This document shows, piece by piece, positions 54,391 through 56,954 of a stretch of 64,000 bases of DNA. Numbering within the stretch: position 1 is the stretch's first letter; every line of letters starts with the position of its first letter. The position numbers were made by a program, and so were the translations under genes. Under the pieces are notes generated by a model, which was not told the DNA's origin, made no database searches, and saw only the letters and a program-made list of their open reading frames with translations. Origin of the DNA: Longimicrobiales bacterium (GTDB lineage: Bacteria > Gemmatimonadota > Gemmatimonadetes > Longimicrobiales > Gaopeijiaceae); the NCBI GenBank assembly GCA_951813395.1, contig OX638356.1, positions 62,001 to 126,000 on the forward strand, in the 5' to 3' direction.

Positions 54391-54597
54391 ATGAAGTCCT
54401 TCTTTCCGATGGTGCGCCGGGAGGGCGTCACGCTCGTCTTCCTGATCGCCTTCGCCGGCTTCGCGTTCATCCCCGTCTGGCGCGACCTCGAGATCGGCGG
54501 GATGGCCGTGTTCGGCTGGTTGATCGCGGCGCTCATGCTGGTCTCGCCAGCGGTCACGCTCGTGGCGTTCCTCCGGCGCCGCGGCGACTCGCGCTGA
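54391..54597 (+). CDS. Small membrane protein paired with sodium symporter
   Basis: A 68-residue protein (MKSFFPMVRREGVTLVFLIA and on) with two hydrophobic segments: VTLVFLIAFAGFAFIPVW and GMAVFGWLIAALMLVSPAVT. ATG 54382 is an alternative, three codons earlier. Its TGA shares one base with the ATG of the symporter (TGATG), a strong coupling sign. It is a likely small subunit of the transporter, analogous to the DUF3311 partner of other SSS carriers. Confidence 0.7.
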   Translation: MKSFFPMVRREGVTLVFLIAFAGFAFIPVWRDLEIGGMAVFGWLIAALMLVSPAVTLVAFLRRRGDSR

Positions 54598-56030
54598 TGC
54601 TCCTCGAGCGCATCCTCGTCGGGGTCTACCTGGCCGCGTGCATCGGGATCGGTATCTGGGCGTCAAGGAAGGTCCTGACCTCCCGCAGCGAGTACTGGGT
54701 CGCGGGCAGGCGCATCGGCACGGTCGTCAATTCGATGGCGATCATGGCGGCGCTGGCGAGCGGCGGCTCGATCATCGGCGTCATGGGCCTGGCGTACGCG
54801 CAGGGTATCCCCGCGACGCTGGCGCTCTTCGGCGGGTCGGTGGTCGGCTTCTCTCTCGCGTCCATCCTTGTCGCCAGGCCGCTCCGGAACTTCGGCAAGT
54901 TCACGATCACCGACTTTCTGAGCTTTCGGTACCCGCACGCGGTGGTCCGCTACCTTGTGCCGATTCTGATCGTCATCGCCTTCACCATCTACATCGTCGC
55001 GCAACTCAAGGCGGCCGGCATCGCCGCCGAGGCGCTACTCGGAATCCCGTACAACACCGCCCTGGCGATCGCGACCGTGGTGTTCATCATCTACGTCTCG
55101 TTCGGGGGCATGGTCGCGATCACCTGGACCGACGTGATCCAGGGCTTCCTCATGGTGCTGGTCGTCGTGGGCACGGCCGCGGTGCTCATCTGGCGGGTGG
55201 GATCGCCCTTCGAGATCATGAGCCAGGCCACGGTCGTGGCGCCCGAACTCGGACAGGTCGCGCACCGGCCCGTGTCCAGCTACCTCGGCTATTTCGTGAT
55301 CTGGGCCACGGCCATCCCGGTCATCCCCCACATCGTCATGCGGGTCTTCACCGCGCGCGACGCCGACAGCGCGCGCATGTCGCTGAACCTCTCGATGCTC
55401 GTGTACAGCGTGATGATCCTCGCGGCGGTGCTCGCGATCGTGCCGGTCGGCCGGATCGACTTTCCGGCGCTGCAGGACGCGGACGAACTCTTCCTGCGCG
55501 TGATGGAGACGCAGTTTTCCCCGCTGATACGCGGCATTGCCGTCGCCGCCGTGCTCGCCGCCGTCATGTCCACCACCGATGCGCTTCTTCTCGCCTGCAG
55601 CTCCGCGATCGCGCACGACATCCTGGGCGGTGCCATGCAGGGCCGGGCCAGCGAGCGCACGCTCAGCCTCGTGCGCATCGTCACGACCTGGGTGATCGGG
55701 ATCGCCGCCCTCCTGTGGGCGTTCTCCCCGCCCGAGCTGATCACCCAGTTCTACACGGCCGGGGTCGGCGTGCTCAGCTCCAGCCTTTTCGTCCCCACCG
55801 TCGCCGGGCTCTGGTGGCAGCGGGCCAACCTGGCGGGCGGCGTCGGGGCGGTCGTGTCGGGCGCGGCCGTGTACATGGTGGTGCAGCTGGGCATTGTCGA
55901 CATCGGCGTGGCGCCGGTGGTCGTCGCGCTTGCCGCCAGCGCCGCGGCCATGGTCCTGGGCGGGCTGTTGGGTCCGCGGGAATCCAGCGAGATGGTTGAC
56001 CGGATCGAAGCGCTGCACGGCCAGGGCTGA
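54597..56030 (+). CDS. Sodium:solute symporter
   Basis: A 477-residue SSS carrier with about 13 membrane helices. It starts MLLERILVGVYLAACIGIGI then SRSEYWVAGRRIGTVVNSMA, the family opening. Core motifs are SFGGMVAITWTDVIQGFLMV, HIVMRVFTARDADSARMSLN and AVLAAVMSTTDALLLACSSA. It shares only family-level similarity with the symporter at 50962 (different length and no helical insert). Substrate unknown; the pantothenate/acetate branch is possible. Confidence 0.92.
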   Translation: MLLERILVGVYLAACIGIGIWASRKVLTSRSEYWVAGRRIGTVVNSMAIMAALASGGSIIGVMGLAYAQGIPATLALFGGSVVGFSLASILVARPLRNFGKFTITDFLSFRYPHAVVRYLVPILIVIAFTIYIVAQLKAAGIAAEALLGIPYNTALAIATVVFIIYVSFGGMVAITWTDVIQGFLMVLVVVGTAAVLIWRVGSPFEIMSQATVVAPELGQVAHRPVSSYLGYFVIWATAIPVIPHIVMRVFTARDADSARMSLNLSMLVYSVMILAAVLAIVPVGRIDFPALQDADELFLRVMETQFSPLIRGIAVAAVLAAVMSTTDALLLACSSAIAHDILGGAMQGRASERTLSLVRIVTTWVIGIAALLWAFSPPELITQFYTAGVGVLSSSLFVPTVAGLWWQRANLAGGVGAVVSGAAVYMVVQLGIVDIGVAPVVVALAASAAAMVLGGLLGPRESSEMVDRIEALHGQG

Positions 56031-56105
56031 CGCGCGGAATCCTGGTAGTCCGTCCGTCGGCATTGTCGTCGGTAGTGCGAAGCAGAGCGAAAATGACAAC
56101 TCTGG

Positions 56106-56134
56106 TTGACATTATGTAAAGTGCAGTGTACATG
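56106..56134 (+). promoter_or_regulatory. Promoter with TGTA-N-TACA operator, copy 1
   Basis: -35 TTGACA (56106-56111), 17-base spacer, -10 TACATG (56129-56134). The palindrome-like ATGTAAAGTGCAGTGTACAT (56114-56133) covers the spacer and -10. The ATGT...ACAT ends recall PadR-family boxes. A second, similar promoter lies at 56463-56491. Confidence 0.6.
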
Positions 56135-56163
56135 TCGGCGTTGTGGGGGAGGGGAGTGTCGGC

Positions 56164-56394
56164 GTGCAGTGGACCGTCGGGATGGACGAAGCGAGGCTGG
56201 CACGGCGCACCGGGATTCCCGAAAACCCCCTCCTCCTGCTCGGCGTAGCCTGCCTGGTGCTCGGATGCTGGTTCCTCATTACCGCGTTCCCGCGTGGCGA
56301 GAGAGCGAGAGCAGTCGTCCCGACGCTGGTTGGTGCCTTGGCCGTGGGCGGCCCCCTGTGGATCTCGTGGCTGGGGCCCCTGGTTCTGCCGTGA
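56164..56394 (+). CDS. Small hypothetical membrane protein
   Basis: A 76-residue frame with GTG 56164 ten bases after GGGGGAGGGG; a GTG at 56143 would give 83 residues. Two hydrophobic segments: NPLLLLGVACLVLGCWFLIT and VPTLVGALAVGGPLWISWLG PLVLP. Not recognised. The promoter with an operator upstream supports it being real. Confidence 0.5.
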   Translation: MQWTVGMDEARLARRTGIPENPLLLLGVACLVLGCWFLITAFPRGERARAVVPTLVGALAVGGPLWISWLGPLVLP

Positions 56395-56462
56395 CTTACG
56401 CCCATCTTGCGTTACGGCTCCAACGGTGCTGGATTGCCGGGCACGGCTCATGACAACTCCTG

Positions 56463-56491
56463 TTGTCACAATGTAAGGTCGGGATTACACT
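56463..56491 (+). promoter_or_regulatory. Promoter with TGTAA-N-TTACA operator, copy 2
   Basis: -35 TTGTCA (56463-56468), 17-base spacer, -10 TACACT (56486-56491), with ATGTAAGGTCGGGATTACAC (56471-56490) in the spacer. The lead-in ATGACAACTC and the string TTG.CA..ATGTAA are shared with the promoter at 56106. The two genes may therefore be co-regulated. Confidence 0.6.
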
Positions 56492-56588
56492 CGGAACGGA
56501 GACCAGGGCTTCGGGTATAACCGCTCTATTCTTAACTGACCCCAGAGCCGCCGAATTCCGTGACCTGAACCCGAGAAGGGGGACGCCC

Positions 56589-56954
56589 ATGCGCTGGTGT
56601 GCAATCCTCGTGGCTGCCCTCATCGTGCAGGGGTGTGGGTTGTTGGACCAGGGCCTGGTCTGCACCGAACAATTCGTGTACGCCATCACCGTCGAGGTGC
56701 GGGACTCGTCTACGGGCGAAGCCCTCGCTTCACCGCTGACCGGCGTTCTAACGGATGGCGAATACCGGGAGACCATGGAAGTGCATCGTCATATCCTGAA
56801 CGGGGGCGGGGAGCGACCCGGAGTCTACGACGTCGAGATACGCGCTGAAGGTTACCGGCCCTGGCAAATCAAGGGTGTCGAGGCTGGGCACGACGAATGC
56901 CATGTCGAGAACATCATGCTCCTCGCCGAAATGGTTCCGTCCGACGCGTCCTGA
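56589..56954 (+). CDS. Small lipoprotein with carboxypeptidase-regulatory-like fold
   Basis: A 121-residue protein; ATG 56589 follows AGAAGGGGG. Lipoprotein signal: CAILVAALIVQGC (lipobox VQGC). The mature part reads AITVEVRDSSTGEALASPLT then GVYDVEIRAEGYRPWQI, a Greek-key-like pattern found in carboxypeptidase regulatory domains and starch-binding-type folds. Function unknown. It lies just upstream of the amine-oxidase gene. Confidence 0.65.
   Translation: MRWCAILVAALIVQGCGLLDQGLVCTEQFVYAITVEVRDSSTGEALASPLTGVLTDGEYRETMEVHRHILNGGGERPGVYDVEIRAEGYRPWQIKGVEAGHDECHVENIMLLAEMVPSDAS

What the first reader, a model, noticed from the sequence alone, without database searches (positions are those of the whole stretch)
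56093..56491. Two matching promoters with TGTA/TACA operators
Both have ATGACAACTC lead-ins, TTG-based -35 boxes, 17-base spacers and an ATGTAA...TACA-type palindrome in the spacer. They drive a small membrane protein and a lipoprotein. PadR-type repressors bind ATGT-N-ACAT sites; a duplicated control unit is suggested.
Basis: partly seen in the sequence, partly recalled or inferred. Interest (0 to 1): 0.5.

Follow-up and report, generated by a model that had tools for sequence, protein, structure and literature searches.

The report
Paired operators of one genus-wide regulator
The two matching promoters are each built from two copies of one DNA-binding site; such sites recur across a genus of Gemmatimonadota, where they come and go with a single DNA-binding protein encoded next to molybdate-uptake genes, and some copies ride on small jumping DNA elements.

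Summary
Each site is two 18-bp palindromes in tandem, 21 bp apart: the "ATGACAACTC lead-in" is the left arm of the first, the -35 is its right arm, and the -10 overlaps the right arm of the second.

In the host genome 25 distinct places match a tandem-site model at E<=1e-3 (14 of them built it). In other phyla the same tandem site sits beside a short CylR2/YozG-type HTH gene in 16 of 22 loci read (of 40).

The host's best match to that HTH begins a 369-aa HTH-PBP_like protein encoded just before modA-modB, with a tandem site 40 bp before its start. Of 23 genomes of the genus 22 have an ortholog, and all 22 have the site upstream; the one without it, G008, has no sites.

Some sites are cargo of a 247-bp inverted-repeat element; the G008 copy read is a 172-bp form without the operator. 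The window sites are in no intact element, and the "small membrane protein" is a C-terminal remnant.

Best reading: an autoregulated repressor with a large regulon. Binding, repression and ligand are inferred.

The parts
56094..56111 (+). Site 1, first palindrome TGACAACTCTGGTTGACA; its right arm is the -35 TTGACA (56106-56111)
   Evidence: sequence; 21 bp before the second palindrome; aligned with 13 other host pairs; conserved core in G005, G014, G006
56115..56132 (+). Site 1, second palindrome TGTAAAGTGCAGTGTACA; the -10 TACATG (56129-56134) overlaps its right arm
   Evidence: model match G000:C1:118092-118133, 34.0 bits (this pair is in the model)
56451..56468 (+). Site 2, first palindrome TGACAACTCCTGTTGTCA; its right arm is the -35 TTGTCA (56463-56468)
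   Evidence: sequence; perfect 7+7 dyad; aligned
56472..56489 (+). Site 2, second palindrome TGTAAGGTCGGGATTACA; the -10 TACACT (56486-56491) overlaps its right arm
   Evidence: model match G000:C1:118450-118491, 29.3 bits (this pair is in the model)
54597..56030 (+). Sodium:solute symporter (SSF) gene upstream of site 1
   Evidence: Pfam PF00474 8.5e-56
56143..56394 (+). 83-aa ORF after site 1 (GTG, or ATG at 56182): C-terminal remnant of a 213-aa HELGH membrane protein
   Evidence: no Pfam or NCBIfam family
56589..56954 (+). 121-aa putative lipoprotein after site 2
   Evidence: no Pfam or NCBIfam family; orthologs in G016, G003, G019 follow the symporter gene directly
56031..56588 (.). 558-bp block with both sites, absent between the same two genes in G016, G003 and G019
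   Evidence: alignment; ORFs of L273

Best explanation
Each window site is a promoter made of two tandem operators of one regulator: an HTH_3 (CylR2/YozG-type) domain fused to a PBP_like ligand-binding domain, encoded just before modA-modB at G000:C1:366730-367836, outside the window. Two dimers bind neighbouring palindromes 21 bp (two helical turns) apart on one face of the DNA, cover -35 and -10, and repress; a small ligand, perhaps molybdate or a related compound, changes binding. The regulator controls its own operon and tens of other promoters. Shown by computation: tandem architecture, recurrence, the site upstream of the regulator gene in 22 of 22 genus orthologs, loss of gene and sites together in G008. 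Inferred: binding, repression, ligand, effect on the two window genes.
For: Tandem register and genome-wide excess. Other phyla: the tandem site beside a 64-91-aa HTH_3 gene in 16 of 22 loci read. Profile of 14 of these HTHs finds the host protein as best host hit, E 4.9e-21, with a site 40 bp before its ATG. Domains HTH_3 and PBP_like; neighbours modA and modB over NCBIfam cut-offs. Orthologs in 22 of 23 genus genomes, the site upstream in 22 of 22. G008: no ortholog, no model match at E<=1e-3. Closest solved chain CylR2, E 1.3e-9.
Against: No binding or expression data. The relaxed single-palindrome count is below its control. HTH-PBP_like relatives in G023, G024 and G027 have no model match upstream, so the pairing is not seen outside the genus. 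The 16 loci are not all independent (L144/L165 and L142/L188 are near-identical); 18 of 40 such loci were not read. The co-loss rests on one genome, 94% complete. In 4 of 17 host sites read the operator overlaps an apparent start codon, which does not fit use of the built-in promoter there. The targets read are not molybdoenzymes, which weakens molybdate as ligand.
Confidence: 0.78

Rival explanations
1. The same protein binds the same tandem sites but activates, or switches between activation and repression with its ligand.
For: Binding evidence is the same; the -10 elements (TACATG, TACACT) are poor matches to TATAAT.
Against: Operators cover -35 and -10 themselves, the usual position for repression; small HTH_3 proteins of this kind are mostly repressors (recalled).
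Confidence: 0.13
2. The sites are mainly decoys or passengers: the mobile element spread the operator and most copies control no gene.
For: Element-borne sites in the host (3 of 36 places at E<=1) include one between convergent genes (L033); 3 of 17 host sites read are at gene ends; large numbers of sites in several genomes.
Against: 10 of 17 host sites read lie upstream of a start, outside exact-ended elements; the site before the regulator gene is kept in 22 of 22.
Confidence: 0.15
3. PadR-family repressor sites.
For: TGTA/TACA half-sites; three PadR genes in the genome.
Against: None next to a site; spacing differs; another HTH protein tracks the sites.
Confidence: 0.02
4. TyrR-type regulator: the TyrR box TGTAAA-N6-TTTACA (recalled) resembles one palindrome.
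For: Half-site similarity; one HTH_50 match over the cut-off in the host.
Against: G021 has no HTH_50 match at E<=1e-3 but 138 site matches.
Confidence: 0.01

Closest known systems
CylR2 / YozG-type small HTH_3 regulators with a small membrane-protein partner (names recalled; CylR2 also)
   Same: Same HTH type; the same tandem operator lies upstream of such genes in 16 of 22 loci of other phyla read, 13 of them with a small membrane-protein gene
   Different: In this genus the HTH is fused to a PBP_like domain, has no membrane partner next to it, and its sites number tens to over a hundred matches per genome
ModE molybdate regulons (PMC2700814, passages read)
   Same: Regulator encoded beside modAB; predicted wide regulon; in that paper sites fade where ModE is lost, as gene and sites are both missing in G008
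   Different: HTH_3 plus PBP_like here; operator unlike the ModE consensus given there (ATCGCTATATA-N6-TATATAACGAT)
MITEs with IHF sites or promoters, e.g. Correia elements (PMC10969869 and PMC2229807, passages read)
   Same: Small inverted-repeat element without an evident gene, in many copies, carrying a protein-binding site
   Different: The cargo is the tandem operator of one specific regulator, and 247-bp forms with it and 172-bp forms coexist
PadR regulons
   Same: TGTA/TACA-like half-sites
   Different: Other spacing, no linked PadR gene

Membership tests
PadR regulon | PadR gene beside a site | tested here: not met
   three PF03551 genes, about 3.6, 5.1 and 77 kb from the nearest of 36 site places
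PadR regulon | ATGT-N8-ACAT operator (recalled) | tested here: not met
   ATGT-N12-ACAT at site 1, second palindrome
CylR2/YozG-type HTH regulators | HTH_3 domain close to CylR2 | tested here: met
   PF01381 4.8e-11; CylR2 chain 1.3e-9
CylR2/YozG-type HTH regulators | stand-alone HTH of about 65-90 aa with a small membrane-protein gene beside it | tested here: not met
   host protein is 369 aa with a PBP_like domain, followed by modA and modB
CylR2/YozG-type HTH regulators | tandem operator upstream of the regulator's own operon | tested here: met
   22 of 22 genus orthologs
ModE regulators | adjacent modAB genes | tested here: met
   host only: TIGR01256 129.4 over 62.5 bits, TIGR02141 204.5 over 182.6; not confirmed in G021 (out of frame)
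ModE regulators | ModE-type HTH and Mop domains (recalled) | tested here: not met
   Pfam lists HTH_3-type and PBP_like families only, no ModE or Mop family
ModE regulators | binding regulated by molybdate | not testable with these tools
   needs protein
MITE | terminal inverted repeats, small fixed size, many copies | tested here: met
   exact 12-mer ends 247 bp apart in 7 loci, 172 bp in two elements; arm matches in 11 of 13 genomes
MITE | target-site duplication | tested here: inconclusive
   TA or CTAG next to both ends in some copies, not in all
MITE | related autonomous transposon | not tested
   no search made
TyrR regulon | HTH_50 protein in genomes with sites | tested here: not met
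   G021: no match at E<=1e-3, 138 site matches

The most novel reading that the evidence does not exclude
A transposable operator: a MITE acquired a roughly 75-bp module holding the tandem operator (with its built-in promoter) of one HTH-PBP_like sensor, and its transposition has been placing new genes under that sensor across a genus of Gemmatimonadota. The one species without the sensor keeps the element but not the module: a natural experiment in how a regulon is born and lost.
Probability: 0.3. Interest if true: 0.78.

Novelty: new variant of a known kind. Interest (0 to 1): 0.58.

Why it matters
It ties a tandem operator found in distant phyla to a family of small HTH regulators and predicts their binding geometry (two 18-bp palindromes in 39 bp). 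In this genus one such regulator, encoded next to molybdate-uptake genes, seems to have grown a large regulon, with part of its sites on a mobile element and a sister genome that lacks regulator and sites alike. How regulons spread and vanish could then be tested by comparing insertion sites between species.

Tried and rejected
PadR: genes present, not linked to sites; the acidobacterial PadR model gave three matches, none over its cut-off. TyrR/HTH_50: not discriminating. One palindrome with two mismatches: below its control, so not used for counts. Strand of a model match as promoter direction: dropped, the site is near-palindromic and many places match on both strands. Inverted-repeat search: no pairs in 8 of 10 regions, among them one element (L034) and L232 whose ends one search shows; I relied on alignments and. 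Gapped pattern for end plus single palindrome: 2 matches, both in G014, none in four other genomes; too strict to count elements. Footprint of site 2: three close relatives have the lipoprotein gene without the block, so none was possible. modA next to the regulator in G021: the translation tried was out of frame, so not confirmed. Searches used the wrong strand for some loci and were redone. Host name: the Palauibacter abstract (PMC10469786, outline and abstract) was a guess at the group; I did not establish the genus. Papers: molybdate + HTH + PBP-like domain, 0 papers; CylR2 + operator + inverted repeat, 0; two searches returned noise; listings show no bacterial MITE carrying a repressor's operator; PMC3584215 held only a surname match. 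Nine of ten paper searches used.

Full report
WHAT IS THERE. The two sites are as described: the same ATGACAACTC lead-in, TTG-type -35, 17-nt spacer and TGTA...TACA dyad. TGTA-N10-TACA occurs nowhere else in the window. Each site is thus two 18-bp palindromes whose starts are 21 bp apart; the right arm of the second overlaps the -10.

GENOME-WIDE. The window is bases 62001-126000 of a 4.09-Mb single-contig genome. TGTAAN9TACA gives 22 forward matches against 1 for the reversed control, some as pairs in the same 21-bp register. A sequence-only model of 14 pairs has 63 matches at E<=1 over both strands, which I count as 36 distinct places, 25 of them at E<=1e-3 and all 14 training pairs among these. 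Its E-values are rough by the tool's own statement. Against: one palindrome with up to two mismatches gives 156 forward matches against 191 for the control.

DISTRIBUTION. Of 40 genomes (host, 22 others of its genus, 17 of other genera in the order), 22 have matches at E<=1e-3: the host and 21 of the 22 others of its genus, with 37 to 150 matches each (both strands counted; lower bounds in 20 of the 22, where only 150 candidates were scored). G008, same genus, has none; nor do the 17 of other genera. A scan of GTDB genomes with a 41-base tandem pattern gave 82 stretches; by title I count 42 from Gemmatimonadota or Longimicrobiales and 40 from others (one titled only 'bacterium'). OX639991.1, a Longimicrobiales chromosome, has the same length as the G021 contig. 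A sponge origin of many of these MAGs is my guess from their names.

THE REGULATOR. Of the 40 non-Gemmatimonadota stretches I read the surroundings of 22. Sixteen have a 64-91-aa HTH_3-like gene within about 0.6 kb of the site: L121, L127, L130, L135, L142, L144, L145, L154, L165, L167, L169, L178, L186, L188, L193, L195; 13 of these also have a small membrane-protein gene (not L135, L142, L188). L144/L165 and L142/L188 are near-identical pairs. Two (L146, L159) have runs of the membrane-protein genes but no HTH in the span read. Four show neither: L134 and L161 (site close to the end of the stretch), L173, and L174, where only ORFs of 100 aa or more were listed, so a short HTH gene could be missed. 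Fourteen HTHs were aligned (A2) with their operators. In eight genomes searched with A2 the best host hit is the start of a 369-aa protein (L026:4731-5837 minus; G000:C1:366730-367836); a tandem site ends 40 bp before its ATG. Pfam: PBP_like 8.6e-43, HTH_3 4.8e-11. The next two genes are modA and modB by NCBIfam cut-offs. Among 28 genomes 22 of the 23 of the genus have an ortholog, G008 not; G023, G024 and G027 have weaker ones, G025 and G026 none. The model matches upstream in 22 of 22 genus orthologs (weakest L262, 15.3 bits) and in none of the three outside. The closest solved chain is CylR2. The name YozG and the CylR1 membrane partner are recalled.

TARGETS. I read gene context by eye at 17 host sites: the two of the window, L023, L025, L026, L028, L030, L033, L036, L039, L091, L093, L094, L098, L099, L102, L104. 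Ten lie upstream of a start: the window sites (one before a remnant), a short-chain dehydrogenase / M20 peptidase pair (L023), a Rieske-cytochrome b operon (L025), the regulator-mod operon (L026), an amidohydrolase (L039), a hydrolase (L091), an S9 peptidase (L093), a beta-propeller protein (L099), a glutamine synthetase (L104). Four overlap an apparent start codon and signal peptide: L028 serine hydrolase, L030 amidase, L094 multihaem lipoprotein, L098 CocE-type hydrolase. L033 and L036 lie between convergent genes; L102 overlaps a stop codon. Apart from the regulator and modAB these names are mine from the translations, not from family searches. The flavour is peptide, amide and nitrogen use plus respiration, not molybdoenzymes.

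THE MOBILE ELEMENT. Three host sites (880134, 899193, 1173061) lie in near-identical elements with ends like GCAGTCCGTGGA and its complement. Nine of the ten G014 sites fetched were aligned and all nine lie in the same family, three of them (L216, L217, L222) with one end lost; they were chosen by score, not at random. Exact ends are 247 bp apart in L088, L215, L221, L224, L232, L236 and L238, all with a model match inside, and 172 bp apart in L244 (G008) and in one G016 element seen in L075 and L249. The G008 copy that I read has the same ends and arms but no operator. With an operator-free arm as query, 11 of 13 genomes have matches, G008 27 (40 candidates scored per genome, so lower bounds). 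Of the 12 loci picked by that arm alone, seven have a tandem site inside the element (two of G000, and G003, G005, G010, G014, G018) and five do not (G006, G008, G017, G021, G023). So forms with and without operator coexist, also in genomes that have the regulator; only the lack of any site in G008 sets it apart. Among the best site of 19 other genus genomes (L071-L089), three have an exact end within about 150 bp (L076, L086, L088), so most strong sites are not in exact-ended elements. Near the window sites there is no such end with up to 3 mismatches.

THE LOCUS ITSELF. In G016, G003 and G019 the lipoprotein gene starts a few bases after the symporter gene; in the host 558 bp with both sites lie between. 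In G005 the symporter end and site 1 are conserved (80% over 133 bp), followed by a short ORF with HELGH. The host's 83-aa ORF matches the C-terminal part of a 213-aa HELGH protein of G019. A simple history is that site 1 once drove such a gene, now decayed, and that a second copy of the control unit precedes the lipoprotein; the order of events is open.

MECHANISM. Inferred: HTH dimers on both palindromes, two turns apart, cover -35 and -10 and repress; the PBP_like domain senses a small molecule. Adjacency to modAB and a sub-cut-off match of that domain to the C-terminal part of a molybdopterin-biosynthesis model (109 bits against a cut-off of 534) suggest molybdate or a related compound; the targets do not. 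My odds: regulator-operator pairing 0.85, repression given binding about 0.8, molybdate-type ligand 0.4; the whole statement without the ligand 0.78.

KNOWN AND NEW. Known: small HTH autoregulators; ModE regulons whose sites fade when ModE is lost (PMC2700814, passages); MITEs with promoters or IHF sites (PMC10969869, PMC2229807, passages). I found no description of this operator, of an HTH-PBP_like regulon or of a MITE carrying a specific repressor's operator in the searches; these cover open-access papers only, and several were poorly aimed. I rate it a new variant of a known kind.

Noticed in passing
L028:5695-5737, L030:5006-5048, L094:5051-5091, L098:5310-5351: In four of 17 host sites read the operator overlaps the apparent start codon and encodes the first residues of a signal peptide or lipoprotein signal.
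   Followed up: partly
G021:C1:3738488-3739282, 4079352-4079809, 207148-207756: Element arms in regular arrays, steps of about 172 and 250 bp: elements seem to sit head to tail (spacing read).
   Followed up: no
L252:2611-2653, L250:2715-2757: Two element ends facing each other within 43 bp, just downstream of the regulator gene in G014 and G019.
   Followed up: no
L135:4754-4794, L142:2703-2743, L188:1506-1546: In Bacteriovoracaceae-like genomes the tandem site lies between a small HTH gene and a divergent ABC-transporter gene, with no membrane partner.
   Followed up: no
L174:5205-5245, L190:2642-2682: AT-rich alphaproteobacterial single-cell genomes share a conserved intergenic tandem site without a known regulator beside it.
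   Followed up: no
window:52817-53671: MerR-type regulator with a TipAS antibiotic-recognition domain on the minus strand, about 2.4 kb before site 1.
   Followed up: no
window:57467-61644: Two long ORFs on the plus strand overlap known-looking genes; the 890-aa one runs into what look like two creatininase-type repeats by eye.
   Followed up: no
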